60,454 nucleotides of DNA from Thermoplasmata archaeon (GTDB taxonomy: Archaea; Thermoplasmatota; Thermoplasmata; Lutacidiplasmatales; UBA184): assembly GCA_021806135.1 (NCBI GenBank), contig JAJZYB010000009.1, positions 1-60,454 of the forward strand, given 5' to 3'. The number at the start of each line of letters is the position of its first letter. Position 1 is the stretch's first letter. The position numbers and the translations under genes were made by a program. The notes beneath the pieces were generated by a model. That model was given only the letters and a program-made list of their open reading frames with translations. It was not told where the DNA came from and did no database searches. Shown piece by piece: positions 12,975 to 54,502 of the stretch.

Positions 12975-15569
12975 TCATTTGCCTGACGCTGGCCCCGGGT
13001 GGGCCTCCCGCCACCCCCGAAGGGCCTCCTCCGCCAACACCCAGACGGTGGCCTCCTGCCGCCCGGCCTCCTTCCTGCGGAGGAAGGCCCGGAGCCTTTC
13101 TCCCCCACGGTGGGTGCCGGCGACCCAGAGCAGGTGCGCCCCCTGCTGCCGGGCCTTGTCCCAGGATCGGGCCAAGCGCCGGGGGTCCTCCAGGCCTGAG
13201 ACCTCCACCTCCACGTGGAGGTCCCGGGTCCCGCCGAGGGGCCCTTTCTGGACCCGCGTGGCCCCTGACGTAGGCCGTGAGGCCGGGGCGACCGTCATGA
13301 GATAGCGGGCATCGGGCAGGCGTCGCTCGAACCCTCCTTGACGAGGCATCTCCAGCGCGAGCCCCCGGTAGGCGAGCAAGGCGAAGACGTCCCTCAGCAG
13401 CCGCAGGTGTTCGAACGACTCCCGGGGAGCACCCGTGTCCCCCCGCCACCCCAGGCGACCCCATCCCGCCTCCGTGAGGCAGAATCTTCCCGGGGCCAGC
13501 GCGTGGAAGAACCTACGGCGCTCCCCCACGGCCCACCAGGGGGGTTTGGGCTCCGGCGGTACCCGGCCGACGAGCAGCCCGAGGAGCCCGTCCACCTCTT
13601 CCGTCTCGGGCTCCTCCGGCCGGGTCCCTCCCGCTGCCGGGGAACGGCCGGGAGGAGGGCAGGGGAGCCCCGTCCCCTCCAGGGTGCGGGGGCGCTGGAC
13701 CGGGCCCGGCAGCACCACCAACCGGGGGAGGTCCTCCCCCACTCTCCTGAGGTAGGCGGCGTGCCGGGGGAGGCGGGCAAAGGCCCCCGTGAACTCGGCC
13801 GCGGGGCGCGAACCGGGATGGAGGGGAAGCCGGGGGGCGAGCCAGGGCAGGAACTGCCGGGCGGGGCCCGGGGCCATGCGAAGTCCGAAGACGGTCCCCA
13901 CCTCGGACCAGGGTCCCCCCTCTCCCCCGGCAAGCCCCTCTGCGCTCCCCTGGGTGGCCAAGAGCAGTCCGACACCGAACTTCCTGGCCTCACGGACCAT
14001 GGTGCCAAGGAGGCGGGGGGAGAGAAGGTGCGCCTCGTCGAGGACGAAGAGGGTCCGTAGCCGGTCCGGTCCGGGCTGCGCTCCCCGGAGGAGGGCCAGA
14101 TAGCACCGGGCCAGGAGCAGGTGTGCCACGAAGAGTCCCCCGCCCTCCCCCAACTCCCCTTTGGGGAGGTGGAGCAGGACCGAACGGCGTTGACCCAGCA
14201 CTCTTTCGGGGTCCTCGCCACCGGTCCGGGGCGACACCAGGGCACGGATCGTCGGGTCGAAGAGAACCCGGGCGAGCCGGTTCTGTACCGAAGCCAGGAA
14301 GTCCGGCTGCCGACGGTGGACGCCGACGAGCTCGTCCAGGAACTCCCTGAGCGTGGGGTCGGCCAACAGCGGCCGCAGGGAGGCGGCCTGACCGAACGGG
14401 TCGTGGAAGAGACGGGCGAGGTCGTGGAGGTTCCCGCCGGTGCCCAGCACGCACCGGAGCCCGCCTTCCAGTAGCCGCTCCATCCGGGGACCCCAGAACT
14501 CGTCCCGGAGGGAGCCGGCCGGGCGGAGGGCGCCCAAGAGCTCCCCCACCAGCCGGGACCCTGTCCCCCCGTCAGCGCTACCGCCTCCGGAGGGAGGAGA
14601 GGGAGGAGCCAGCACGTCCATCCCGGTCTCCCCCGGGCCGGGCCCGACGAGAACGAACTCTCCCCGGGGGAGGCCCGGCAACCGGTCGAGGATGGCCGGG
14701 GTCAGGTCCCCGTGCATGTCCAGGACCACCAGGGGGATCCCCCTGCGATGGACCTCGGCCGCCCCATGGGCCAAGAGCTGGGTCTTCCCGCTGCCGGTCA
14801 ACCCCAGGACCAGGACATGACGCAGGAGGGTGGCCTCGTCCGGGGACCATCCGTTCCCTTCCCCCCAGTTCATCGCCCAGGGAAGCGGCGGTGCGCTGGA
14901 AGTGGGGGGCGGCAGGGCGCCAATCCTCACGGCACCGGCGGGCGCCCTCCAGGGGAGGGACCACCTTTCCTTGTGCATTCCCGGGGCCGGCCCGCCGTGG
15001 AACCGCTTGAGTTCACGGCGGCGCCACTCTCCTTCGGCGGTGCGGTGTGCGCGGGAGGCCGGGGCCCAGGCTTCCGGCACCCCTCCGAGGGCCGGGCCCC
15101 AGCTCAACAGGACGCGGTGCTGGGCGAGCAGGGCCTCCCGCAACGGTCCGAAGCCGGCGACGCGGACCTGGCCCTCCGGCGGGTCTCCGCCGAGAAGGAT
15201 CCCTTGAACGGCCCAGGAGGCCCCCAGGTGGGCGGGGAGCTCCGGGAGGTCATGCTCCGCTGGCGGGGGTCCGGGCGGGGAAGGGAACCGCAGCACGCTC
15301 ACCGTCGAGGGAGGGAGATCGTTCTCCGGGTCCCAGGTACGGGGGACCAGACGGAGGTCCCCCTGGAGGAGCGCGAGCCGACGCAGTTCCAGATGGATCC
15401 CCACCGGGGCGTAGCTTCTGAGGAAGGGCCTTCCTTCCCATTCCCCCTGCTCGAGGGTCCAGCGGGCACCGGGGAGGCGGGAGAGGAGGTCGTATCCCCA
15501 TCGCACCCACGGGCCGACCGGGGTATCCGGGACCAGACCCCAGACCTCGTAGCAGGAGATCCCGATCAT
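12975..15569 (-). CDS. HerA/TraD-like DNA-pumping ATPase with C-terminal nuclease-like region
   Basis: The product has 864 residues, starting at the ATG at 15569, which overlaps the stop of the small upstream gene (ATGA). Residues 1-230 are a VirB4/TraC-like N-terminal region without clear motifs. A Walker A, GLTGSGKTQLL, is near residue 256, followed by VVLDMHGDLTPAIL, the DxHGDL signature of VirD4/TraD/DUF87 ATPases. Walker B, TLFVLDEAHLLS, is near residue 508. The C-terminal 100 residues include DLHVEVEVSGLEDPRRLARS and resemble a restriction-endonuclease-like fold, but the full D-ExK set is not certain. Such ATPases translocate DNA in conjugation (coupling proteins), end resection (HerA) or plasmid transfer. 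The gene is unlinked to the VirB4 operon 30 kb away but could be its coupling ATPase. Confidence 0.75.
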   Translation of the reverse strand: MIGISCYEVWGLVPDTPVGPWVRWGYDLLSRLPGARWTLEQGEWEGRPFLRSYAPVGIHLELRRLALLQGDLRLVPRTWDPENDLPPSTVSVLRFPSPPGPPPAEHDLPELPAHLGASWAVQGILLGGDPPEGQVRVAGFGPLREALLAQHRVLLSWGPALGGVPEAWAPASRAHRTAEGEWRRRELKRFHGGPAPGMHKERWSLPWRAPAGAVRIGALPPPTSSAPPLPWAMNWGEGNGWSPDEATLLRHVLVLGLTGSGKTQLLAHGAAEVHRRGIPLVVLDMHGDLTPAILDRLPGLPRGEFVLVGPGPGETGMDVLAPPSPPSGGGSADGGTGSRLVGELLGALRPAGSLRDEFWGPRMERLLEGGLRCVLGTGGNLHDLARLFHDPFGQAASLRPLLADPTLREFLDELVGVHRRQPDFLASVQNRLARVLFDPTIRALVSPRTGGEDPERVLGQRRSVLLHLPKGELGEGGGLFVAHLLLARCYLALLRGAQPGPDRLRTLFVLDEAHLLSPRLLGTMVREARKFGVGLLLATQGSAEGLAGGEGGPWSEVGTVFGLRMAPGPARQFLPWLAPRLPLHPGSRPAAEFTGAFARLPRHAAYLRRVGEDLPRLVVLPGPVQRPRTLEGTGLPCPPPGRSPAAGGTRPEEPETEEVDGLLGLLVGRVPPEPKPPWWAVGERRRFFHALAPGRFCLTEAGWGRLGWRGDTGAPRESFEHLRLLRDVFALLAYRGLALEMPRQGGFERRLPDARYLMTVAPASRPTSGATRVQKGPLGGTRDLHVEVEVSGLEDPRRLARSWDKARQQGAHLLWVAGTHRGGERLRAFLRRKEAGRQEATVWVLAEEALRGWREAHPGPASGK

Positions 15570-43290: not shown

Positions 43291-43671
43291 TCATAATTCC
43301 TCGGCGGGCGGAGGCCCCCGAACTTGTTGGGGGGAGGAAGCCCGCCACCCCTTAGGCCTCCCCACGGCGCGGGCTTTCTGGTCCCGTACATACTTCGCGA
43401 CGGTCTCCTCGGAAACCTGGCCTACCGATCCCACGTAGTAGCTCGGACTCCAGAGGTGTCCATGACGGAGAGTCGCCCTCAACCCCGGATGCTGTGGGAA
43501 CATGACCTGCCCGGTCGTACCCTTCAGCACTTTCACGATGCCGGTGGGCGACTCCGTCGGTGGTACACCGATGAAAGGATGGGTGTGATCAGGCATCACC
43601 TCCAACTCCTTGACCTCCCGGCCCCGAGCTTGGGCGATCGATCGAATGGCCACCCTGAGGCTACTCCGCAC
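43291..43671 (-). pseudogene. tnpA: IS200/IS605 TnpA (Y1 HUH transposase), N-terminally truncated
   Basis: The product has 126 residues. KELEVMPDHTHPFIG contains the HUH pair (His-Thr-His), GHLWSPSYYVGSVGQVSEET is the family signature, and KYVRDQKAR holds the nucleophilic Tyr region. Family members have about 45 more residues at the N-terminus (the KYRR-containing strand). In this frame a stop codon lies about 40 codons upstream and no start is found before GTG 43671. The C-terminal tail is unlike known TnpA. No tnpB or intact ends are seen, so this is a relic. Confidence 0.75.
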
Positions 43672-44158: not shown

Positions 44159-44623
44159 TCAGGGTTCCCAGCCACGCTCGGAGCACTCCTGCTCCACGGC
44201 GTGGCGGAGGTACTTCAGGGCGGGCTCGGCGAGCCGGTCGAGATGGAGGAGGAGGTAGGAGAGGTAGACCCTCTCGAGCTCCAAGGCCTGGGAAGCTCCC
44301 TGCCGGTCTTGTGGCGCGGAGGTGGGGTGATGCTTGGCGCTGGTAGGCCCCGGACCCCCTCGTCGTCCAGACCTCGTTTCGTCTCCCTCGGGGTGTAGCG
44401 GTCGCGGAAGGGGGAGGGTCGGGGGTGTGTCGTTCCCGAGACCTCCCGGGAGGAAGGCTGGGAGCCCGAGACGGGCTGAAGAGGTGGAGCGAGGAACGAT
44501 GCCCACCGGGTCCTGCACGTTCGAGATGGGTTGCCCCGTCACCTGCTCGACGATCTTGCGGACGGACCATGGGGTGGCCCTCCGGGGGGGCGTGGGGTGG
44601 AGGCCGGGGGAAGTGTCGGACAT
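44159..44623 (-). CDS. Hypothetical protein behind a palindromic operator
   Basis: The product has 154 residues. The N-terminal part (SVRKIVEQVTGQPISNVQDP) and the C-terminal helix (LERVYLSYLLLHLDRLAEPA) look like real folded protein, joined by a Pro/Gly-rich middle. No family is recognised. The main evidence for a gene is the promoter: TTTATG (44651-44656, minus strand) about 31 nt before the ATG, and an 18-bp palindrome over the start codon. A self-regulating DNA-binding protein is one possibility. Confidence 0.5.
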   Translation of the reverse strand: MSDTSPGLHPTPPRRATPWSVRKIVEQVTGQPISNVQDPVGIVPRSTSSARLGLPAFLPGGLGNDTPPTLPLPRPLHPEGDETRSGRRGGPGPTSAKHHPTSAPQDRQGASQALELERVYLSYLLLHLDRLAEPALKYLRHAVEQECSERGWEP

Positions 44624-44706: not shown

Positions 44707-46365
44707 CTATCCCGCCCCGGAAGTCCGCTCCCCTGCGAAGGCGCTCCCGAGGAACCGGTCCTCCTCCGCCGAGGCGATCACCCGGACCGGGAGCGCGGTC
44801 TCCCCGGTCAGCAAGAGCCCACCGGACCAGCCCTGCTCCCGAGGCAGCGGAGCCCCCTTGATCAGCGTGATCTCCTCCTCCCGGAGCGGAAAGAGCGCCT
44901 TCAGCCCCCGGCCCCCGTCCTTCAACCGGAGCAGGAGGAGGAAGTCCACGTTCATCAGGATGGAACGTCCCGCGGGAGAGCCAAGGAAGTCGGCCGGGTT
45001 CTGGCTGAGAAGTTCCAGGCCCGCCCGGTAGTGCCGGACATGACGGACCAGGTGATCGAGGAACCCCGCCGTACTGCCGGAAGCCATCAGGTAGTGCGCC
45101 TCGTCCACCACCACGAGCTTCTCTCCCGGGCGGCGACGGAGCTCCCCCTCCACGAAGTCCAGCGTCAGGGTGAGGAAGAAGGGGAGCTCTCCCGGGGAGA
45201 CCGCGGAAAGGTCGAACGCGCAGAGCTTGGCGGAGAGGTCCAGGGAGGTGGGCCGGTCGAGCTCTGAGAGCGATCCCCCCACGGCCCGGGAGAGCAGGCG
45301 CAGGAGCCGGTGGCCGGCCGTCAGCTCCGCTTCGAGGGCGGCGAGGAGATCGCTGAGGCAGGGGACCTTCCCCTGCCCCCTCTCGTAGAGCCGTCCCAGC
45401 GCCACGTCGAGACACGCGACCTCTTCGTCCCGGAGCGATGGGAAGAGGCTCCGCCAGAGCACCCCGACCGTGGCCATCTTTCTGCGTCGATCCCCCCCGG
45501 TCGTGGCCGGGTCCAAGGGGTTCATGGAGGAACCGGAGCTTCCAGGGGCGAGCACGACCCCTCCCAGCGTCTCCAGGACGCGGGCCAGCCCGCCGAGCGG
45601 GTCCAGGACGAAGACCGAGAGCCCGGGGTGGGCCCAGCGGCTTCGCAGGATCCCGAGGGCGGAGGCGTAGCTCTTCCCGCTGCCGGTTTCCCCGAACAGC
45701 GCCGAAGAGTGGTGGGGATGCCGGAAGCGGTCATGGTAGATGGGCGTGCCGTGGAAGGCGTGGGCCCCGAGGAGCGGGCCTCCCGGGTCGGGGCTGGGAT
45801 CCTCCCAGAGGGGAAGGAGCGCGGCCAGGCCCTCCTCCTCCAGACGGTGGAACCACTCCGACGGGGCCGGGGCCCCGGGACAGAGGCTCCAGAAGGTCGG
45901 AAGGGCCCTCCACCGGGACCGCCAGGTCCGGACCCCGATCCCCTCCAGTTCGCGGACGGTGTCCTGAAGTGTCGGTCCGCCTAAGCGCAGCCCTTCCCAC
46001 TGACGCATGCCCACGAGGACGTCCCAGAGCCGGGTGGACCGGCGCAGCAGCTCCTCCTCGAGCCGTCGGCACCCTTCCGCGGCCTGGAGGAGAGGAGGGG
46101 CCCGGGGGTCCCTTTCCCCGCGCAGGCTCTCCAGGTCGGACTCCAGATGGGTCCGATCCTCCCGCAGGTCCCGTAGGCCCTCCTCCAGCGCGACCGGCCG
46201 GAGCCTGAGGAGGGTGTCGAGCGGCGCATCCGTCCGGCCCAGGGGGGGCAAGCCGGGGACCCCCACCACCGTGGGGAACCGCCGGAGGAGCCGGACCTTC
46301 CACGAGCCGTGGGGGCCCTCGATCCCCTCAGTCCCCTCGTGCCAGCGCCGCATCCGCCCGGTCAC
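44707..46365 (-). CDS. VirB4-like type IV secretion ATPase (CedB/TraC type)
   Basis: The product has 552 residues, starting at a GTG whose GTGA overlaps the stop of the previous gene. Residues 1-200 are a charged, partly coiled region (ALEEGLRDLREDRTHLESDL) that resembles the second half of VirB4 N-terminal domains. The ATPase core has Walker A FGETGSGKSYAS near residue 220, SVFVLDPLGGLA, Walker B KLVVVDEAHYLM near residue 417, and LLSQNPADFLGS, the sensor region of VirB4/HerA proteins. VirB4 ATPases power assembly and substrate transfer in conjugation. It is the last gene of the six-gene unit and is shorter than a full VirB4 (about 800), because the first part seems to be on another gene. 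Confidence 0.8.
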   Translation of the reverse strand: MTGRMRRWHEGTEGIEGPHGSWKVRLLRRFPTVVGVPGLPPLGRTDAPLDTLLRLRPVALEEGLRDLREDRTHLESDLESLRGERDPRAPPLLQAAEGCRRLEEELLRRSTRLWDVLVGMRQWEGLRLGGPTLQDTVRELEGIGVRTWRSRWRALPTFWSLCPGAPAPSEWFHRLEEEGLAALLPLWEDPSPDPGGPLLGAHAFHGTPIYHDRFRHPHHSSALFGETGSGKSYASALGILRSRWAHPGLSVFVLDPLGGLARVLETLGGVVLAPGSSGSSMNPLDPATTGGDRRRKMATVGVLWRSLFPSLRDEEVACLDVALGRLYERGQGKVPCLSDLLAALEAELTAGHRLLRLLSRAVGGSLSELDRPTSLDLSAKLCAFDLSAVSPGELPFFLTLTLDFVEGELRRRPGEKLVVVDEAHYLMASGSTAGFLDHLVRHVRHYRAGLELLSQNPADFLGSPAGRSILMNVDFLLLLRLKDGGRGLKALFPLREEEITLIKGAPLPREQGWSGGLLLTGETALPVRVIASAEEDRFLGSAFAGERTSGAG

Positions 46366-46778
46366 GCTCCCGCTCCACCCCCGCTCCGGAAGGGCGACCC
46401 GGGGGCAAGGGCCCAGGCGACGGCCGCGGAGAGGAGGGCCAAGAGCAGGTCCCGGAGGGAGAACGGCAACGGTTGGAGGGTCTCCAGGAAGATCCCGAAA
46501 CCGGCGACCCCTGCGACCAGGGAGGGGGCCCAGGAGACCAAGGCCGAACCTTCGGCCCTGGGGGCCCTCGGGACCCCCGCGGAAGTTTCCACCGAACCCG
46601 CAAGCAGAAGGAACCAGACCACCAGCACCAGGGACGGGGTGGATCCCGGATCGACTCCATAAGCTCCCAGGGCGGCCGAGAGGAGCGTCACCGCCACGGC
46701 ATAGGGGGCCCATCCTGCGAGGCCCGGGCTGCGGCGGAGACGGGGGAGGAACCGCCGGTGCCCTCCGCCCGCCGTCAC
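46362..46778 (-). CDS. Small multi-pass membrane protein of the secretion operon
   Basis: The product has 138 residues from a GTG at 46778. Four hydrophobic segments are visible: YAVAVTLLSAALGAYG, SLVLVVWFLLLAGSV, LVSWAPSLVAGVAGFGIFLE and LRDLLLALLSAAVAWAL. A basic N-terminus (RRFLPRLRRS) precedes them. No family is recognised. The start overlaps the upstream stop (GTGA) and the stop overlaps the VirB4 start (GTGA), so it is locked between the PrgI-like protein and the ATPase and probably belongs to the inner-membrane platform. Confidence 0.7.
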   Translation of the reverse strand: MTAGGGHRRFLPRLRRSPGLAGWAPYAVAVTLLSAALGAYGVDPGSTPSLVLVVWFLLLAGSVETSAGVPRAPRAEGSALVSWAPSLVAGVAGFGIFLETLQPLPFSLRDLLLALLSAAVAWALAPGSPFRSGGGAGA

Positions 46779-47494
46779 CCGGGGCCGGTGATGGCCCGGG
46801 CCACCCGTTGGAGCTCCCTCCCCCGGACCCGGTTCCAGGACGGGGGTGGGCGGACCGGCCCGGCCCCCTCCCCCGGGGCCGCCTCCACCAGCACCCGGGC
46901 GGGAAGGAGGAGGAAGAGACGGGTCCGGTACCGGCCCCGGCGGAGTTCCTCCTGGAGCCTTCGGTAGGCGAGGTAGGGGGCCTGTTCCTTCGGCGCTGGG
47001 GAGGGTTCGACGGGGGGTTGTGGCCACGGGAACGCCAGCCTCACGAGGAAGACCTCCCCGGCCGTGCCGGGCAGGAGGCGGAGGAGAGCACGGGACTCCT
47101 GCAGGAGCACCTCGGGATCCCTCCCGAAGACCGGTCTCGGGGAGAGCTCCCATGCGGCCCAGAGCCCGCCTCCGGCATCGCGGATCAGGTCCCCCCGAGC
47201 ATGAAGCGGGAGGCTCCCGTCGTCCCCCTCCCGCGCGAGGAGCGCCCGACGAAGGTGGAAGCGGAGGGCATCGACCGCCAGGTCCCAGAGGCTCTCGCCG
47301 TCGACCTGAAGCAAGCTCAGGGCAGTGGCGACGCCCGCGAGGAGAAGGCCGGCGAGAGGGCTGACCGCCACCGCGACGAGCAGCCCCACGGTCCCGGCGA
47401 GGAGGGTCCGGAGCATCTGTCGGTTCCCGGAAAACGGCCCCAGGGCCATCCGATGTCCCTGGCGTTCGGGGAGCGGGATCGCGAGATCGCCCAT
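46775..47494 (-). CDS. PrgI/VirB3-like membrane protein fused to a VirB4 N-terminal-like domain
   Basis: The product has 239 residues from ATG 47494. Residues 1-95 fit the PrgI/VirB3 plan: a short amphipathic start (GDLAIPLPERQGHRMALGPF), a helical hairpin (LLAGTVGLLVAVAVSPLAGL, LLAGVATALSLLQ) and the closing DLAVDALRFHLRR. In PrgI this precedes VirB4. Here residues 100-239 contain a strand-helix series (LWAAWELSPRPVFGRDPEVL, LAYRRLQEELRRGRYRTRLF) like the first domain of VirB4. The first part of VirB4 therefore seems to be attached to PrgI rather than to the ATPase. A start further upstream is open but not coding in character. Confidence 0.65.
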   Translation of the reverse strand: MGDLAIPLPERQGHRMALGPFSGNRQMLRTLLAGTVGLLVAVAVSPLAGLLLAGVATALSLLQVDGESLWDLAVDALRFHLRRALLAREGDDGSLPLHARGDLIRDAGGGLWAAWELSPRPVFGRDPEVLLQESRALLRLLPGTAGEVFLVRLAFPWPQPPVEPSPAPKEQAPYLAYRRLQEELRRGRYRTRLFLLLPARVLVEAAPGEGAGPVRPPPSWNRVRGRELQRVARAITGPG

Positions 47495-47522
47495 GGTCCA
47501 TGGTCCTTCCCCCGCGGGAGCC

Positions 47523-48698
47523 TCAGCCCGAGGCCGGGCCGCGGGGGACGGATGGTGTCCAGCGGGCCGGTGGCCGGCTCCTTGGGGCGGCTCCTCCCCC
47601 TCCCGTCCCCCCACCGGTGAACTGGTGCGAGGAGCTCGCGGCTCCCCCCAGGTGCCGGGCAAGCGCGCCGATCCCCTCGCCCACCCCCCAGACCACGGCG
47701 CTCGCGGGACCCAGGGTGGCCGAGGGCCACGGGGCGGTGAGCCGGGCGGCGGTCGCCGCCCCCTTTCCGGCACCGGCCGAACGGGAGGCCCGGAAGCTCC
47801 GGGCCCCGTGTTGCAGCCACCCTCCCCCGGCCTCGGTGGGGGCCCGGGGCGCCTGGGAGAGGCCGCCGGCGATGAAACCGGACGGGGCGGGCGCGCCGAG
47901 AGCCCCCGTGAGGCCGGCTCCGGCAGAGGCGAGCAGGGCCGGCATCCCCAGGGCGACGCCGAAGAGGGCCAGGACCAGCACGACGCTCTGGGAGCCCACC
48001 GCCAAGGCCAGGGGGACGATGAGGAAGCAAGGCAGGAAGACCATCTCCACGAAGAGCCTCCACGCCCGGCGGGCGAGGGAAGCGGCGAAGGGCCAGGGCC
48101 AGAGCAACGTGAAGAGGGGCAGGAGCACGAGAAGCACGCCGATCAAGGCGTCCCTCAGGGCCACCAGGTAGGCCAACAGGAGGGTGAGGAGGAGCAGGGC
48201 GATCTCTCCAATGAGGGCCAGGAGGCCGTTGCCCCAGGCGATGTTGAGCCCGGCCGGGCCGACCAGGTTGTAGTAGTTCTGCCAGGCCCCTCCCCCGTAG
48301 GTGTAGAAGATCGGGTAGACGGCCGAGCCGAAGGTGAAGACCAGTTCGGCGAGCGGTACGGCGAGGTTGGCGAGGAGCACGCCGAGCACCAGCCGGGGGG
48401 CCAGGTCCGGAGAGCGTCGCGCGAGGGAGGGCAGGACCGCGCGCAGCAGGTAGAGGAGCCCCACGCCCACGATGACGAGGACGGCGAGGGGGTCCACCAG
48501 GTTCACCAGGAGGTAGCCGCTGAACGCCTGGGCCTGGGCAAAGAGCCCCGGAGAGGACCAGGAGGCGAAGACCGCCTGGGGGGCCATCTCCGGGACGAAG
48601 ATCCCACCATAGGTGGGCTCCACCACCAGGCTCACCGCTGCCGACAGGGTCCCGAAGAGGGCGAAGAGCAACGCCTTGATGATCACCCCGAGGCCCAT
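47523..48698 (-). CDS. VirB6/TrbL-like polytopic membrane protein (CedA-like)
   Basis: The product has 391 residues. Seven or eight hydrophobic helices occupy residues 1-270 (VIIKALLFALFGTLSAAVSL, LAVLVIVGVGLLYLLRAVLP, ALIGEIALLLLTLLLAYLVA, MVFLPCFLIVPLALAVGSQ). The rest is a soluble tail rich in Gly, Ala, Ser and Arg. This matches VirB6/TrbL-type channel proteins and archaeal CedA in layout. It starts 12 nt after the VirB2-like gene stop, behind a good Shine-Dalgarno (ACAGGAGGAACCC before ATG). It would form the inner-membrane channel with VirB4. Confidence 0.7.
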   Translation of the reverse strand: MGLGVIIKALLFALFGTLSAAVSLVVEPTYGGIFVPEMAPQAVFASWSSPGLFAQAQAFSGYLLVNLVDPLAVLVIVGVGLLYLLRAVLPSLARRSPDLAPRLVLGVLLANLAVPLAELVFTFGSAVYPIFYTYGGGAWQNYYNLVGPAGLNIAWGNGLLALIGEIALLLLTLLLAYLVALRDALIGVLLVLLPLFTLLWPWPFAASLARRAWRLFVEMVFLPCFLIVPLALAVGSQSVVLVLALFGVALGMPALLASAGAGLTGALGAPAPSGFIAGGLSQAPRAPTEAGGGWLQHGARSFRASRSAGAGKGAATAARLTAPWPSATLGPASAVVWGVGEGIGALARHLGGAASSSHQFTGGGTGGGGAAPRSRPPARWTPSVPRGPASG

Positions 48699-48710
48699 GG
48701 GTTCCTCCTG

Positions 48711-49121
48711 TCAGACCCCGGTGAGGACCCAGCGGGCCAGCGCCCAGGCGAGACCGCTGACGGCGGCGACCAGGATGAGGCTCCCGATGAGCGCGTCCCG
48801 GGCCCGCTCCTTGGCCTGTACCTTCCGGGTGGGGTCGTGGGAGAACCAGCTCAGCGCGACCCGGGCCCAGACCAGGGTGACCACGGCCCCGGCGGCCAGT
48901 CCCACGATGAAGAGGAGCCGGCTCAACGCGGCAGTGAGGTTGTCGGTGGCGTTGGCCCCCACGGGATGGAGGTGCCCTGCCGGAAGCGGGCCGGGCACCG
49001 GGGCCGGGTAGGCCCCGGCCGTGCTTCCCCCGGTCAACCCGGCGCTCACGGAGAGGACCAGCCCGAGGAACGCGAAGAGCATCGGGATCGGGGATGGGCG
49101 TCCCCTCGCCGGCGCGCTCAT
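48711..49121 (-). CDS. VirB2/CedA1-like pilin candidate
   Basis: The product has 136 residues from ATG 49121, which overlaps the stop of the giant gene (ATGA). A signal-like helix (PMLFAFLGLVLSVSAGLTGG, residues 12-32) is followed by a Pro/Gly spacer. Two transmembrane helices follow, about 69-90 (LLFIVGLAAGAVVTLVWARV) and 111-133 (IGSLILVAAVSGLAWALARW). They are joined by a short basic loop, TRKVQAKERARDA. A cleaved signal, two helices and a basic cytoplasmic loop with an AKxRA-type pattern are the hallmarks of VirB2/TrbC conjugative pilins and archaeal CedA1/TedC. Its position next to VirB6, VirB3 and VirB4 homologues strengthens the call. Confidence 0.72.
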   Translation of the reverse strand: MSAPARGRPSPIPMLFAFLGLVLSVSAGLTGGSTAGAYPAPVPGPLPAGHLHPVGANATDNLTAALSRLLFIVGLAAGAVVTLVWARVALSWFSHDPTRKVQAKERARDALIGSLILVAAVSGLAWALARWVLTGV

Positions 49122-52100
49122 GGGGATCCCTCCGGTGGCGGGTCCTCGGACGGAGCGGTCGGACCGGGGTAGTAGCGGGCCTTTCCCTCCGGATCCTGCT
49201 CCCGGTGGATCTTCCCCGAGGATTCCAGATCCTCGAGGTCCTTCTCCGCGTCGTCCCCGGGCCATCCCTTCATCCGGGCCATGGCCCCCAACGCCTCCGC
49301 CTCCTCGCCCGGGGTGGCCTCCACCTGGTTCAGCAGTTCCTCGCGGCCGCCCACCGTCCGCGGGTTGCGCTTCCGGCGCCGGACCCTGAAGCGGAAGAAG
49401 AGGGCCGAGCCCAGCACCCCGCCGAGGAAGAGGGCGAGGAGGACCAGGCCCAGGGGATCCGGGGAAGCCCCCCCGGGGCCAGGGAGCAGGACCGTGGTGC
49501 TCGCCCCGTAGGGCCCGGTCACGGTCACCTGGAGCGCCGAGCCCGCCCCCGGGAGGATCAGGGTGACCCGGCCCCCTTCGGTCACGCCCGAGACCGGGGA
49601 GAACCCGGGGGCCTCAGCGCTCACCGGGTAGCCGGTCAAGGGGTTCCCGAAGACATCCGCGGCGCTCACGTCGAGGAGGAGGTCCGAGTTGTGGACGCTC
49701 CAGGAGACGACCCGGAGAACCCCCTCTTCGGGGTCGGCCAGCCAGGAGTACGGGAACGAGAGGTTCTGAACCCCGGGAGCGCGGACGACGTAGGTGACGT
49801 TCCCGGCCCGTCGGTCGGAGAGGAGGAAACGCGCCCATCCCCCTTCGAGCGCCGAGACCTGCGGGCTGCCCACCGGCACGCCTCCCTGCCAGGCCTGGAG
49901 GGTGGTGTTGCCCGAGCCGGTGGTGTTCACGTTCCCGAACGCATCCACCTCCGCGATGGCCAGGGAGACGTTCTGCCCGGCGAACCCTTCGGGGGTGAGG
50001 TCCGGAAGGCTCCACCCCACGGCGGGACCCGGTCGCACCACCACCCGGGCGTAGACGGTCAGATTGGTGAGGAGCGTTCGGTCCGGCGCGAGGACCGTCA
50101 GGGAGAAGGCGACCGGGTAGGTCCCGCTCCGGTTCTTGAGGAAGGTGGCCGCGTCGCCCCGGGTCCCGCCCACCCCGGGGCCCCACCAGGTCCCGAGGAC
50201 GAGCTCCCCCGGCGAGGGCCCGCCTCCCGGCCAGGTGGCGACGAGGGTCTCCGGTACGCCGGCCTGGGCGGCCGGTACGGTGAGCTCAGGGGCCGGGGGA
50301 GGGGCGAGCCCCTCGAAGGAGATCGTCCGTTCCACCTCCTTCCCCAGGGCATCCCGGACCGAGAGCACCACGGGGAGATCCCCGGGCGCGTCGATGGGCA
50401 CGGAGAGGTTCCAGACCCCGTCGGAGGGGATGGGGACCCACCCCGCGGACAGGTTCCCGTTCCCCTGGACCCTTCCCTCCAGCGCCCCCACCCCTCCCTG
50501 GACGATCCCGGTAAGGGCGGGGAGGAAGGGGACAAGGCCGACCGTTTCCTGTACGCTCACCCCCAGGTCGAGAGGGTCCGTCACGGCGGTGACGTTCTCC
50601 TCCGCGGTCAGGACGGCGCCGGAGGCGTCCTCGGCCCGGGCCACCAAGGTGTAGTTCCCGGGCCGGGCGAAGGTGACGTTGGCGCTCAGATCCGGATAGG
50701 TCGCCCCACCCAGGACCTGGAGGCTCCCGGTCCACGGCGCGGTACCGCCCCCCGGCGTCCAGGCGTAGGACTCCGGCACCCCTGTGGCCACCTCGGCAGG
50801 CCCGGTCCAGGGGCCCGGGACCGGGGCCGGCAGGACCGAGAGGTTGAGGGAGATCTCCACGAGAGCACCGGCCTGGTCCCGGGCCCAGGCTTGGATGGTG
50901 AAGGCTCCGGACCGGGAGAAGAGGATCGCACCCGAGGGGAGGACCGAGGCCCCGGAGGGGAGGTCCCATCCGGTGGAGTACGGTGCCGCGCCTCCTTGGA
51001 TGGACGCTTCCACGGAAGTGGGCAATCCCACGTCCGTGGTGGGGGGCGTCAGCGAGACCGCCAGGGAGAGCGGCGGGTCCACCGTGAGGACCAGAGCGCT
51101 CTGGGCGATGGCCCCGAGCCCGTCCTGGACCGTGAGCCCGATGACGTAGCGTCCGGGGGTGGCGGGGGAGGCCGTGGCGAAAGGCCCCTGGGCCGAGGAC
51201 GAGAGCCCCGCCGGGATCGCCCAACGGTAGCTGAGGTTCCCATACCCGCCGGAGGCGGTCGCCTCGAAGGAGACCGGGAACCCCTCGTCCACCGCCGTGG
51301 CGGAGGCTCCGAGGCTCAGGGAAAGGTGCGGCACCACCGGCAGTCTCAGCGGCTGGAATTCCCGGGCTCCGGCCGCGTCGGAGACCTCGAGCGTCCCATT
51401 GACGGAGCCCGCCATCGCCGGGGTATAGGTCAGCTCCGCGAGGCCGACGCCCACCTCCACGAGGGTCCCGAGCTGCCAGCGGTAGGTGAGGGGCGCGACC
51501 CCGCCGAGCGCCTGGGCGGTGAGGGGGAACGGCACTCCCGCCTCCGCGGCCGGGGAGGGAGCGAGCACTGGACCTAAGGTCAGGGACGGGGCGACGTCGA
51601 GAGTGATGGAGCTCGCCACCTGGGCGCCCGCCCCGTCGGTGAGCACCACCCGGACGGTCTGGGTGCCGGCCTGGGGGAAGAGGCAGGAGACCGAGCTGCC
51701 CCCGGAGCCGTTGAGATCCGGAAAGTTCCAGACCAGGTTCTCCGGCGAGGACCCTCCCAGGACCATGGCGCTGAGGAGCACGGGTTCCCCCACCTCCGGG
51801 GTGCTCTGGTTGCTCTGGAGCAGGAGCGTGGGAGCCGCCGCCACGGTGACGTTCAGCGGGGGAGCGGAAGCACTGGTCCCCTGGGAATCGGTGATGGTGA
51901 GGGCCACCTGATAGAACCCCGGGACGGTGAAGACGTGCGTGGGATCGGCAGCCGAACTCCCCGATCCGTCCCCGAAGTCCCAGGCGTACGTGTACGGTGG
52001 AACCCCGAAGGAGACCTGGCTCTCGAAGGAGGCGGCAAGGTTCGCATCGACCCCGGCCTCACGGAGGGAGGAAGCGGCCGAGGGATCCGGGACCACCGAC

Positions 52101-54451
52101 ACGCTCACGGGGGTGGCGTTCGCCCACCCTCCCGCGGCATCGATGAGCTGGGCGGTCACGGAGTAGGTGCCGGTCGTCGCGTAGACATGGCTAGCCGGGG
52201 CCGGTAGCGGCCCGCTCCCATCCCCGAAGTCGATGCCGGCCTCTTGCCAGGGACTGGTGCCTCCCCGGACCACGAGGGACGCCTGCAGGGCCTCTCCCAC
52301 GTCGACCTTCAGCGAGCTCAGGTCCAATGCCACTTGGGGGAGGGGGTGGACGGTCAAGGAGGACGAGGAGAAGGCTCGGGCACCCAGGGCGTCGGTGACC
52401 CGGAGCGAGAGGGTGAGCGATCCCGGGGCGGGAAGGTCCAGCGTCTCCGGAAAGGTCCCCCCGGGGCCTGAGAAGTCCACCGTGGGTCCCCCGGAGACGT
52501 TGAGGGTGCCGGCGTACGGAGGGATCCCGCCCTCCACGTCCAGGGAGAGGGCAACCGGTCCCACATCCGTGGCCGCCGTGGGTAGCTCGATGATCCCGTT
52601 GACGGCGGGGGCGACGGGCACGGTGGCATTGGTTTGGGCCTGGAACCCAAGGGCATCCTCCACCGAGACGAAGAGGGCGAGGGGTCCCGCCGCCCGGGGG
52701 ACCCACGGGACCTCCAGGAGGCCGCCCGGGGCCGGCCCGAGGGGAACGGAGACCCCATCGGAGCCCTGCACCTCCACCCGGTACGGTGGGGTCCCACCGG
52801 CGAGGAGGAGCGGGAAGGAGACGGGAAGGCCCACCTCGGCCGTGGGGAGGGGACGGAGGAACGTCGCCGTGAGCGGCTCCACCCCGGTGATGCTGAACGA
52901 GGAGGAGGCGTTCGCCCCCAGCGCGTCCTGGACGCCCAGGGTGGCGAGCACGGTGCCCGCCGAGTCCAACGTCCCCCGGAAGGAGAGCGTCCCGGCACCG
53001 GAGAGGGACCCCCGCTCCGGGGACAATGCCGTCACGGGAGAGGAGAAGGAGAGCCACCACTGGTAGGGCGCCTGACCTCCGTAGACCGTCCCCGACAGGG
53101 TGAAGGGGCTTCCGGTGGCGAGCGGGGCGGTGGAGCCCGCCAGGGAGGCCTGGGGGTCGGGCAGGACGCGACCGACCTCGGTGGAGGCGGAGAACGCCCA
53201 TCCGGACGCATCCTGACCGCTCCCCGTCACCACGACCGGTCCCGGGACCGGGACCGTGAACGGCTCGGAGTAGGTCCCCGCCGCCGGGAAGGAGCTCTGG
53301 AGGGTCGGGCCTCCCAGGTACGGCACCCACTCCACGGTGTAGGGAGGGGTCCCCCCTTGGACGGTCAGCGTCTCCGGAAGAGGGAACCCGACGTCGGCTT
53401 CCACCGGATCGGAGGCCAGCGTGAGGGTTGGCAGGGGGGCCACGGAATCGATGGCCTCGGGAGCCTGGGTGCTCCTCCCGCCCGAATCGTGGACGACGAG
53501 GCGGATGCCCAGGGGACCGGGGGTGCTGGGGTCCACGGTGAAGTTCGCCCCCTTTACGGACCCCGTCCCTTGAGAGCCCTGCCAGGAGTACTCGTAAGGG
53601 GGCGTTCCCCCGGTCACCGAGGCGGTGAAGGTCACGGGAACCCCCACGTCGGAGAGGGTCGGGCCCTCCACGGCGGCGAGCAGGGCGGTCCCCACGAGGA
53701 GGGGGGTCACGGCGGTCACGGAGATGACCTCCCCGAGGGCATCGGTGACGTTGGCCCGGGGAAGGTAGCTTCCGAGGGCATAGGTGTGGGAGACCAGCGC
53801 GGTGCCGGGCGCCGGGAGGAAGGTGATCTCCTGGGTGCCGTCCCCGAAGCGATAATGGACCTGGTAGGGGCCCTCCCCCCCGGAGACGGGGAGGCTCAGG
53901 AGCACGGGGGTGCCCGAGGTGGCTGGATCCGGGGAGGCCGACAGGGGCCCGGCTTCGAGCGCCGGCTCGAGCTCAACGGGGGCGTCCGCCGTGAGGGTGA
54001 AGGAGCCGGTGAACCCAAGGACCGCGTAGCCGGTAACGGTGACCTGGGCGGTGGCGTTCACCGGGGCGAGGAGGGACTGGGCGTAGAGGGTGGTGGAGAG
54101 CGTGTCCGCCGGGGCGAGAGACCCCACGCCGGTCGCGTTCAGGAGGACCCAGAGGACGTTCTGGACCACCACCGGGTCGATCATGGAGACGGGGACCACC
54201 CGGGCGGCGAGGACCTGGGACCCGCCCGCGAGGAGGGTCGCGGACGGTGGGTCGATGGAGAGGGTGGCGAAGTCGTTCCCGCTCTCGGGGGAGGCGGCCC
54301 CGGGGTGGGGGACCTGGAGAGGGTCTGTCCCCGAAGCGGGGGAGCCCGCCCCGGTGGCCTGGTTCGCCAGGGTGCCCAGGGGGACGAGGGTGGTCAGCAC
54401 GAGGACGACGATCACGGCGAGGACGAGGGCGCGGGTCCACGGGGCGCTCAT
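49118..54451 (-). CDS. Giant PKD-domain surface protein heading the secretion operon, with cytoplasmic winged-helix tail
   Basis: The product has 1777 residues. A signal peptide (VLAVIVVLVLTTLVPLGTLA) is followed by about 15 PKD/Ig-like repeats of 85-95 residues. Clear PKD motifs include VHYRFGDGTQEITF, GIDFGDGSGPLPAPASHVYA and YAWDFGDGSGSSAADPTHVF, each followed by GxYxVxLxVxD. Sequons are frequent. A transmembrane helix (LGLVLLALFLGGVLGSALFF, about residue 1670) leads to RVRRRKRNPR and a cytoplasmic domain of about 75 residues (EELLNQVEATPGEEAEALGA, DAEKDLEDLESSGKIHREQD, ARYYPGP) that reads as a winged helix. It could serve as adhesin and mating-pair stabiliser, and the tail may report contact to the cell. 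It carries the operon's only visible promoter. Confidence 0.82.
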   Translation of the reverse strand: MSAPWTRALVLAVIVVLVLTTLVPLGTLANQATGAGSPASGTDPLQVPHPGAASPESGNDFATLSIDPPSATLLAGGSQVLAARVVPVSMIDPVVVQNVLWVLLNATGVGSLAPADTLSTTLYAQSLLAPVNATAQVTVTGYAVLGFTGSFTLTADAPVELEPALEAGPLSASPDPATSGTPVLLSLPVSGGEGPYQVHYRFGDGTQEITFLPAPGTALVSHTYALGSYLPRANVTDALGEVISVTAVTPLLVGTALLAAVEGPTLSDVGVPVTFTASVTGGTPPYEYSWQGSQGTGSVKGANFTVDPSTPGPLGIRLVVHDSGGRSTQAPEAIDSVAPLPTLTLASDPVEADVGFPLPETLTVQGGTPPYTVEWVPYLGGPTLQSSFPAAGTYSEPFTVPVPGPVVVTGSGQDASGWAFSASTEVGRVLPDPQASLAGSTAPLATGSPFTLSGTVYGGQAPYQWWLSFSSPVTALSPERGSLSGAGTLSFRGTLDSAGTVLATLGVQDALGANASSSFSITGVEPLTATFLRPLPTAEVGLPVSFPLLLAGGTPPYRVEVQGSDGVSVPLGPAPGGLLEVPWVPRAAGPLALFVSVEDALGFQAQTNATVPVAPAVNGIIELPTAATDVGPVALSLDVEGGIPPYAGTLNVSGGPTVDFSGPGGTFPETLDLPAPGSLTLSLRVTDALGARAFSSSSLTVHPLPQVALDLSSLKVDVGEALQASLVVRGGTSPWQEAGIDFGDGSGPLPAPASHVYATTGTYSVTAQLIDAAGGWANATPVSVSVVPDPSAASSLREAGVDANLAASFESQVSFGVPPYTYAWDFGDGSGSSAADPTHVFTVPGFYQVALTITDSQGTSASAPPLNVTVAAAPTLLLQSNQSTPEVGEPVLLSAMVLGGSSPENLVWNFPDLNGSGGSSVSCLFPQAGTQTVRVVLTDGAGAQVASSITLDVAPSLTLGPVLAPSPAAEAGVPFPLTAQALGGVAPLTYRWQLGTLVEVGVGLAELTYTPAMAGSVNGTLEVSDAAGAREFQPLRLPVVPHLSLSLGASATAVDEGFPVSFEATASGGYGNLSYRWAIPAGLSSSAQGPFATASPATPGRYVIGLTVQDGLGAIAQSALVLTVDPPLSLAVSLTPPTTDVGLPTSVEASIQGGAAPYSTGWDLPSGASVLPSGAILFSRSGAFTIQAWARDQAGALVEISLNLSVLPAPVPGPWTGPAEVATGVPESYAWTPGGGTAPWTGSLQVLGGATYPDLSANVTFARPGNYTLVARAEDASGAVLTAEENVTAVTDPLDLGVSVQETVGLVPFLPALTGIVQGGVGALEGRVQGNGNLSAGWVPIPSDGVWNLSVPIDAPGDLPVVLSVRDALGKEVERTISFEGLAPPPAPELTVPAAQAGVPETLVATWPGGGPSPGELVLGTWWGPGVGGTRGDAATFLKNRSGTYPVAFSLTVLAPDRTLLTNLTVYARVVVRPGPAVGWSLPDLTPEGFAGQNVSLAIAEVDAFGNVNTTGSGNTTLQAWQGGVPVGSPQVSALEGGWARFLLSDRRAGNVTYVVRAPGVQNLSFPYSWLADPEEGVLRVVSWSVHNSDLLLDVSAADVFGNPLTGYPVSAEAPGFSPVSGVTEGGRVTLILPGAGSALQVTVTGPYGASTTVLLPGPGGASPDPLGLVLLALFLGGVLGSALFFRFRVRRRKRNPRTVGGREELLNQVEATPGEEAEALGAMARMKGWPGDDAEKDLEDLESSGKIHREQDPEGKARYYPGPTAPSEDPPPEGSP

Positions 54452-54481
54452 GGGTTTCCTCGGGGATGCCGGGGGAGCTCC

Positions 54482-54502
54482 CTGGTAATAAGTTTTCTTA
54501 TT
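54482..54502 (-). promoter_or_regulatory. Promoter of the type IV secretion-like operon
   Basis: On the minus strand TTAATAAGAAAACTTATTAC is the most AT-rich stretch in this part of the window. TATA-like AACTTATTA is centred near 54490 and would place the transcript start near 54463, leaving a leader of about 12 nt with GAGGAA before the ATG at 54451. The element is also an imperfect inverted repeat (TAATAAG, CTTATTA), so a repressor could bind here. Confidence 0.6.

What the first reader, a model, noticed from the sequence alone, without database searches (positions are those of the whole stretch)
44707..54502. A six-gene archaeal type IV secretion/DNA-transfer operon in a Thermoplasmata-like genome
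The sequence shows one promoter and six minus-strand genes in the order PKD adhesin, two-helix pilin-like protein, VirB6-like channel, PrgI/VirB3-like protein, four-helix protein, VirB4 ATPase. Junctions are ATGA, 12 nt, 28 nt, GTGA and GTGA, so the products are probably made together. The pilin candidate has signal, two helices and a basic loop, as in VirB2/TrbC and CedA1. Ced and Ted systems (CedA, CedA1, CedB) are known in Crenarchaeota for DNA import and conjugation. I know of no such system with a giant PKD protein in Thermoplasmatota. DNA import is inference; a pilus or protein export role is also possible.
Basis: partly seen in the sequence, partly recalled or inferred. Interest (0 to 1): 0.9.

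Follow-up and report, generated by a model that had tools for sequence, protein, structure and literature searches.

The report
Chromosomal mini type-IV-secretion pilus operon
A group of acid-soil archaea carries, fixed in the chromosome, a stripped-down relative of the machine bacteria use for conjugation; it is probably a contact-controlled pilus for moving DNA between cells (DNA is the inferred step), and relatives of it turn up across the phylum, including cultivated species in which it could be tested.

Summary
The operon is real and exactly as described. Six minus-strand genes encode a 1777-aa PKD surface protein, a T4SS-type pilin, VirB6, a PrgI/VirB3 protein, a small membrane protein and VirB4. 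A seventh conserved gene (154 aa) follows. The T4SS assignment holds by three routes: Pfam matches in relatives, blind fold searches (VirB6 model to R388 VirB6; PrgI model to the R388 VirB4 N-terminal domain), and order and strand kept in 31 of 31 loci. It is not mobile: present in 81 of 95 sampled genomes of one Lutacidiplasmatales family, under purifying selection, VirB4 tree monophyletic and following genera, no relaxase found, no coupling protein in the operon.

New details: PrgI and VirB4 are the two halves of one protein that is fused in a second T4SS of the same family; the surface protein ends in a membrane anchor plus a cytosolic winged-helix-like domain; a palindrome present once in the 1.85-Mb genome sits at the operon promoter and is kept in g1-g4 genomes. 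Relatives occur in several other Thermoplasmatota families, including two complete genomes whose lengths match Aciduliprofundum boonei and Thermoplasma acidophilum (from memory).

DNA transfer remains inference. Verdict: new variant of a known kind.

The parts
54488..54501 (.). Palindrome ATAAG-N4-CTTAT next to a TATA-like stretch, 36 nt upstream of the first start codon; candidate operator
   Evidence: the only ATRAGNNNNCTYAT in the 1.85-Mb genome. A similar palindrome lies in the same place in L032, L033, L035, L040, L041 and L044.
49118..54451 (-). Surface protein, 1777 aa: signal, many PKD/Ig-like repeats, C-terminal TM anchor
   Evidence: PKD 1.8e-45, PKD_4 1.5e-47; orthologue in every g1-g4 genome with the region assembled.
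49121..49351 (-). Cytosolic winged-helix-like C-terminal domain of the surface protein (residues about 1701-1777)
   Evidence: Homologous to the C-terminus of the smaller surface proteins of g5-g7 (hhalign prob 98.5, E 2e-15) and to stand-alone 98/86-aa ORFs in L042/L046 (2.6e-26, 9e-25). The stand-alone ORFs hit wHTH families weakly, below cut-off.
48711..49121 (-). T4SS-type (VirB2-like) pilin, 136 aa: signal, helix, basic loop, helix
   Evidence: PF18895 T4SS_pilin 1e-4 for this protein (below cut-off); 10 of 25 orthologues match, best 1.7e-8.
47523..48698 (-). VirB6-like membrane channel, 391 aa, 6-7 TM
   Evidence: Model pLDDT 80; top five PDB fold matches all R388 VirB6 (stalk) chains, best prob 1.00, E 0.03; TrbL/VirB6 Pfam in 2 of 33 homologues, best 6.6e-4.
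46775..47494 (-). PrgI/VirB3 hairpin plus a VirB4 N-terminal-type domain, 239 aa
   Evidence: PrgI PF12666 in 6 of 28 orthologues, best 0.01; model pLDDT 84, top ten PDB matches all from the R388 T4SS inner-membrane complex (VirB4 chains), prob 0.69-0.91, E 0.07-0.2; covers residues 7-289 of the fused PrgI-VirB4 of L062.
46362..46778 (-). Small membrane protein, 138 aa, 3-4 TM, function unknown
   Evidence: A 100-150-aa TM protein sits between PrgI and VirB4 in most f1 loci; sequence homology between g1-g4 and g5-g7 versions not demonstrable.
44707..46365 (-). VirB4 ATPase, 552 aa, intact Walker A and B
   Evidence: NCBIfam CD1110 VirB4 1.8e-27, below its cut-off; profile vs PDB 4ag5 VirB4 2e-43; G225, G228, G230, K231, D421, E422 invariant.
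44159..44623 (-). Conserved 154-aa soluble protein, probable seventh operon gene
   Evidence: Homologues directly after VirB4 in g1 and g5-g7 genomes (e.g. L053 3.7e-18); dN/dS 0.26; no Pfam match.

Best explanation
A chromosomally fixed, minimal type IV secretion system of the PrgI/VirB4 (monoderm, FATA-like) kind. The pilin (VirB2-like) is assembled on the VirB6 platform by a VirB4 motor that is split in two: a membrane-anchored PrgI/VirB3 subunit carrying part of the VirB4 N-domain, and the ATPase. The surface protein reaches out through PKD repeats, is anchored in the membrane and carries a winged-helix-like domain inside, so it most likely couples cell contact to the machine or to expression of its own operon through the palindrome at the promoter. 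The transported cargo is most likely DNA exchanged between related cells, as in Ced/Ted. Shown: parts, order, conservation, intact ATPase motifs, split/fusion relation, non-mobile inheritance in the family. Inferred: pilus formation, regulation by the winged-helix domain, DNA as cargo and direction of transfer.
For: Pfam/NCBIfam matches for VirB4, pilin, PrgI and VirB6 across orthologues. Blind PDB fold search: VirB6 and VirB4 of one and the same solved T4SS are the top hits out of 350,542 chains. Gene order kept in 31 of 31 loci and, with a surface protein in first place, in a different family (L059). Split halves fused in the second system: PrgI part residues 7-289, VirB4 part 319-857 of L062. 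Vertical inheritance: 81 of 95 family genomes, VirB4 monophyletic 100/100 with genera recovered, purifying selection. No relaxase in 41 genomes and no coupling protein in the operon, as in Ced/Ted (PMC9905601). Palindrome once in this genome, at this promoter. Winged-helix-like domain conserved and retained alone when the ectodomain is missing.
Against: No direct evidence for DNA: no DNA-repair genes alongside (unlike Ted loci, PMC9905601), no DNA-damage link, no sequence match to CedA1/TedC in PDB. Fold-search E-values are weak on their own (0.03-0.1). Type IV pilus-type ATPases occur in 41 of 41 genomes searched, so adhesion does not need this system. Fourteen of 95 family genomes lack VirB4, so it is dispensable. 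The palindrome pattern was drawn up after seeing the sites, and the g5-g7 genomes lack it in that place.
Confidence: 0.5

Rival explanations
1. An attachment or contact pilus without DNA cargo: the same parts build a conjugative-type filament used to hold other cells or surfaces, with the PKD protein as adhesin, as proposed for relaxase-less T4SSs of Patescibacteria.
For: Large repeat surface protein first in the operon. VirB2-B3-B4-B6 is the pilus-building core by established knowledge. No relaxase and no coupling protein in the operon. The Patescibacteria T4SS shares the T4SS_pilin, PrgI and FATA-type VirB4 features, mostly lacks relaxase, and is held to have a function other than conjugation (PMC12102498). 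A bacterial locus (L123) has the same order: surface protein, pilin, VirB6, PrgI-like, VirB4.
Against: L042, L046 and L053 keep pilin-VirB6-PrgI-VirB4 without a surface ectodomain, so the adhesin is not essential to it. Type IV pilus-type ATPases already exist in all genomes searched.
Confidence: 0.3
2. A protein-export system: VirB4 drives secretion of effector or surface proteins through VirB6, as in T4SSs that lack a coupling protein (Ptl, Brucella VirB).
For: Coupling-protein-free T4SSs that export proteins exist (PMC12857230). The conserved soluble 154-aa gene downstream could be a substrate or chaperone.
Against: No recognisable effector or toxin gene in or beside the operon. The pilin is highly conserved, which fits a filament.
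Confidence: 0.12
3. The transfer module of an integrated mobile element (ICE or plasmid).
For: Thaumarchaeal ICEs carry VirB4, VirB6, VirB3 and pilins (PMC6563490). An IS200-type transposase lies about 0.5 kb beyond the seventh gene. The second, fused T4SS in g3/g4 carries a TraG-like ATPase and may be such a module.
Against: No relaxase. Operon flanked by housekeeping genes: tryptophan/tyrosine-type tRNA synthetase divergent upstream in g1-g4 and a fibrillarin-like gene upstream in g5-g7 (by sequence). VirB4 tree follows genera. No close relative among 72,556 plasmids, best 34% over 48%.
Confidence: 0.04

Closest known systems
Ced (Sulfolobales) and Ted (Thermoproteales) DNA-import systems
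   Same: Chromosomal, relaxase-free, two-helix VirB2-type pilin, VirB6-type channel, VirB4-type ATPase. VirB4 function is divided between two proteins in Ced too (CedB/CedD cover different parts of the VirB4 N-domain, PMC11868833).
   Different: Has a PrgI/VirB3 protein, which PMC11868833 states is absent in archaea (PMC6563490 reports VirB3 in thaumarchaeal ICEs). The split point differs: PrgI plus N-domain versus ATPase. Has a PKD surface protein with an inner winged-helix-like domain. No detectable sequence match to CedA1/TedC; CedD model matched far below cut-off (27 bits against 600).
Patescibacteria T4SS (FATA-like)
   Same: PrgI/VirB3, VirB4, VirB6, T4SS_pilin (PF18895), mostly relaxase-free, chromosomal (PMC12102498).
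   Different: Patescibacteria often add a T4CP homologue (TrsD) and other parts, no adhesin was detected there, and no VirB3-VirB4 fusions were seen; here a fused version exists in the second system of the same family.
R388/pKM101 conjugative T4SS inner-membrane complex
   Same: Predicted folds of the VirB6 and PrgI/VirB4-N proteins match best to the R388 complex.
   Different: No outer-membrane core, VirB11 or VirD4 recognised in the operon; VirB3 and VirB4-N are one chain, separate from the ATPase.
Thaumarchaeal ICE conjugation modules
   Same: VirB4, VirB6, VirB3 and pilins in archaea (PMC6563490).
   Different: Those mostly carry VirD4, lie on mobile elements and are not syntenic; this operon is fixed and strictly syntenic.

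Membership tests
Type IV secretion system (core) | VirB4 ATPase with intact Walker A/B | tested here: met
Type IV secretion system (core) | VirB6 polytopic channel | tested here: met
   Fold search top hits VirB6; TrbL/VirB6 Pfam in 2 of 33 homologues
Type IV secretion system (core) | VirB3/PrgI subunit next to VirB4 | tested here: met
   PrgI Pfam in 6 of 28, weak; fold match to VirB4 N-domain; fused to VirB4 in the second system
Type IV secretion system (core) | VirB2-type pilin | tested here: met
   PF18895 in 10 of 25 orthologues, best 1.7e-8; helix-basic loop-helix
Type IV secretion system (core) | VirB8-type subunit | not tested
   No candidate in the operon; the small TM protein 46362-46778 was not modelled
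Conjugative T4SS | VirD4/TraG coupling protein with the system | tested here: inconclusive
   None in the operon; PF02534 absent in this genome. Two HerA/TrwB-like ATPases in trans (window 12975-15569 and G000:C36) are family-wide but also occur in VirB4-less genomes
Conjugative T4SS | Relaxase | tested here: not met
   PF03432 in 0 of 41 genomes; other relaxase families not searched
Ced/Ted | Sequence relation of pilin to CedA1/TedC | tested here: not met
   Profile of 25 pilins against PDB sequences: no match; Ced and Ted components also lack recognisable mutual similarity (PMC9905601)
Ced/Ted | DNA-damage induction and DNA import | not testable with these tools
   Needs cultures and transcripts
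Patescibacteria/FATA T4SS | PrgI plus FATA-type VirB4 plus T4SS_pilin | tested here: met
   CD1110-family VirB4 best NCBIfam hit, below cut-off; PrgI, weak; T4SS_pilin
Integrative conjugative element | Relaxase or integrase and patchy distribution | tested here: not met
   no dedicated integrase search was run

The most novel reading that the evidence does not exclude
A DNA-exchange pilus widespread in Thermoplasmatota, descended from one chromosomal T4SS, with a VirB4 motor split at the PrgI/N-domain boundary and, in the Lutacidiplasmatales family, a giant membrane-anchored surface protein whose inner winged-helix domain reads contact and switches its own operon through a palindrome found nowhere else in the genome.
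Probability: 0.3. Interest if true: 0.85.

Novelty: new variant of a known kind. Interest (0 to 1): 0.68.

Why it matters
Archaeal T4SS-derived machines are described for Sulfolobales/Thermoproteales (Ced/Ted) and for mobile elements. The December 2025 T4SS review names only Sulfolobus and Thermococcus plasmids in its archaeal section (PMC12857230), and for Thermoplasmatota I found only an isolated VirB4 annotation (E-plasma, PMC10354927). A conserved pilin-VirB6-VirB3-VirB4 locus in Thermoplasmatota, in one family with a membrane-anchored winged-helix-like surface protein, makes the question of how these archaea exchange DNA or build contact pili testable in cultivated species. The literature search covered only openly licensed full texts.

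Tried and rejected
Second pilin upstream of the surface gene in g5-g7: an artefact of stop-to-stop ORFs in the first profile; that gene is fibrillarin-like by its sequence. Coupling protein in trans: two HerA/TrwB-like ATPases are family-wide but persist in genomes without VirB4, so no link is claimed. PamR (CPR pilus) match of the PKD protein: far below that model's cut-off, PKD-repeat similarity only. Direct sequence match of pilin, VirB6 and PrgI profiles to PDB chains: none. Regulon of the palindrome: no second site in this genome; other genomes show background-level sites. Mobile-element origin: see rivals. Search with PF05857 was a poor choice of family and says nothing. Absence of VirB6 in VirB4-less genomes had no positive control in that run.
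Full report
Observation. A seventh gene of 154 aa (44159-44623) follows VirB4 and has homologues in the same position in the genus and in g5-g7 relatives. All seven are under purifying selection against the same-genus locus L031: dN/dS PKD 0.32, pilin 0.31, VirB6 0.14, PrgI 0.26, small TM 0.25, VirB4 0.19, 154-aa 0.26.

Where it comes from. The genome is G000, 1.85 Mb in 65 contigs. The best named relatives of its VirB4 include MAGs AcS5-116 and SubAcS15-67. AcS5-116 is listed among Candidatus Lutacidiplasmatales, soil archaea with GC mostly 67-71% (PMC9287336), and the window is about 71% GC.

What the parts are. VirB4: NCBIfam CD1110-family VirB4 1.8e-27 though below that model's cut-off; family profile to the solved VirB4 4ag5 at 2e-43; Walker A and B residues invariant in 23 sequences down to 21% identity. 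Pilin: PF18895 T4SS_pilin at 1e-4 for this protein and in 10 of 25 orthologues, best 1.7e-8; a signal, then two helices around a conserved basic loop. VirB6: sequence evidence is thin (TrbL in 2 of 33), but the AlphaFold model (pLDDT 80) has R388 VirB6 as its top five PDB fold matches, best probability 1.00, E 0.03. PrgI-like: PF12666 in 6 of 28 orthologues, best 0.01; the model (pLDDT 84) finds only R388 T4SS complex chains in its top ten, matching VirB4 outside its ATPase domain by size of the aligned stretch. None of these fold E-values is significant alone; their agreement on one complex out of 350,542 chains, together with gene order, is what counts.

Split motor. In a second T4SS of the same family (L060-L066, L070) one 860-950-aa protein contains the PrgI-like family in its N-terminal part and the VirB4 family after it, e.g. 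residues 7-289 and 319-857 of L062. The PrgI and VirB4 genes of the window therefore correspond to the two halves of one PrgI-VirB4 protein. The complete genome behind L150 also has a VirB4 with an N-terminal TM region in one 628-aa chain, though the PrgI profile does not match it. Ced shows another way of dividing VirB4 (CedB/CedD; PMC11868833).

Synteny and inheritance. In 31 of 31 loci where all four core genes are present the order and strand are pilin-VirB6-PrgI-VirB4, and in the family loci a 100-150-aa membrane protein usually lies between PrgI and VirB4. VirB4 is present in 81 of 95 sampled genomes of the family and absent from the three sampled genomes of the other two families of the order (tallied by hand from its rows). 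The VirB4 tree puts 22 family sequences in one clade (100/100) with genera recovered, and the second system in a separate clade (100/100). Operon flanks are housekeeping genes, with a class-I W/Y-type tRNA synthetase divergent upstream in g1-g4. No relaxase (PF03432) was found in 41 genomes, and plasmid matches are remote. This is a resident system, not cargo of a mobile element.

Wider distribution. With the VirB4 profile, 170 of 400 genomes of the class match at E <= 1e-10. Loci with pilin-VirB6-PrgI-VirB4 were read in f11 (L067, L068, L152), f27 (L151), f19 Thermoplasmatales (L115, L127 = E-plasma, L144) and, with a third gene not matched by the PrgI profile, f31 (L146); L115, L127, L144 and L145 share the same flanking genes. 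L059 comes from a complete genome of 1,486,778 bp and L150 from one of 1,564,906 bp (contig length of G112 printed); from memory these are the lengths of A. boonei and T. acidophilum, an identification not confirmed by name here, although L059 groups with named DHVE2 sequences (100/100). L059 has the same order with a 744-aa Ig-repeat surface protein first and an array of six pilin-type genes, several fused to ectodomains. Deep branches between families are weakly supported, so one origin is possible but not proven.

Surface protein and control. The C-terminus of the surface protein is a TM helix followed by about 70 residues that are homologous between giant (g1-g4) and small (g5-g7) versions (hhalign prob 98.5, E 2e-15). 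In L042 and L046 the ectodomain is missing and this domain stands alone as a 98- or 86-aa gene before the pilin (2.6e-26 and 9e-25); in L053 both are missing. Its Pfam neighbours are winged-helix families, all below cut-off. In g1-g4 a palindrome ATRAG-N4-CTYAT, perfect or nearly so, lies about 33-37 nt before the surface-gene start beside a TATA-like stretch. An exact search finds it once in the whole window genome, at 54488-54501, and two or three times in G002-G005, one of them at this promoter each time. The pattern was derived from these sites, so the counts are not an independent test; the shared position is the evidence. My inference is that the inner domain regulates its own operon.

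Function. The set VirB2-B3-B4-B6 is what builds a conjugative-type pilus (established knowledge). Lack of relaxase and of an operon-encoded coupling protein is shared with Ced/Ted (PMC9905601, PMC11868833) and lack of relaxase with Patescibacteria T4SSs (PMC12102498). Two HerA/TrwB-like ATPases, one in this window at 12975-15569 (over Pfam cut-off) and one at G000:C36, are family-wide but also occur in VirB4-less genomes, so they are not evidence of coupling. I put DNA exchange at about one half, contact pilus without DNA at 0.3, protein export at 0.12, mobile element at 0.04.

Comparison. It is a T4SS by its core parts. It is not filed as Ced/Ted: the pilin has no sequence match there and the CedD model is far below cut-off. 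It is nearest to the FATA/Patescibacteria type by VirB4, PrgI and pilin families. PMC11868833 states that VirB3 is absent in archaea; this operon is a counter-example on a chromosome, and PMC6563490 had reported VirB3 in thaumarchaeal ICEs.

Noticed in passing
L060-L066, L070 (genera g3/g4 of the same family): A second T4SS with a fused PrgI-VirB4 protein, a 173-181-aa protein and a 1100-aa TraG/TraD-like ATPase; separate VirB4 clade; possibly a true conjugation module.
   Followed up: partly
window 12975-15569 (-): 864-aa HerA/TrwB-like ATPase with one predicted TM, conserved across the family; TrwB_AAD_bind and DUF87 over Pfam cut-off. A related 828-aa ATPase lies at G000:C36:130124-132607.
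   Followed up: partly
L059:8826-13685 (-): Array of six pilin-type genes, four of them with large N-terminal ectodomains, in a locus whose genome length matches A. boonei: decorated pilins.
   Followed up: no
L134, L135 (Micrarchaeota): Six consecutive 360-510-aa proteins with 5-7 TM (VirB6-like by size and topology only) before two 2-TM proteins and VirB4.
   Followed up: no
L123 (unclassified bacterium): Same order, 1134-aa DUF11-repeat surface protein, pilin, VirB6, PrgI-like, VirB4, with the PrgI-like protein matching the N-terminus of VirB4 models and a TraD-like ATPase further on.
   Followed up: partly
L111-L138 haloarchaeal loci: Recurrent haloarchaeal locus: 139-aa pilin-like, about 565 aa, 280 aa, 370 aa, 2-TM 370 aa, VirB4 735 aa, in several followed by about 1270 aa, 294 aa and 503 aa; also on plasmids as 'transfer complex protein'.
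   Followed up: no
window 43291-43671 (-): IS200-type transposase (Y1_Tnp 3.6e-23) matching from profile position 25 onward, so the N-terminus looks cut; a few hundred bases past the seventh operon gene.
   Followed up: no
window 4166-9208 (-): Second giant PKD protein (1680 aa) with PQQ/beta-propeller and fn3-like parts.
   Followed up: no
g5-g7 loci (e.g. L045, L053, L058, L100): Conserved element CCGTTCA-N-CGTTCGCC (with variants) just after the fibrillarin-like gene and before the operon.
   Followed up: no
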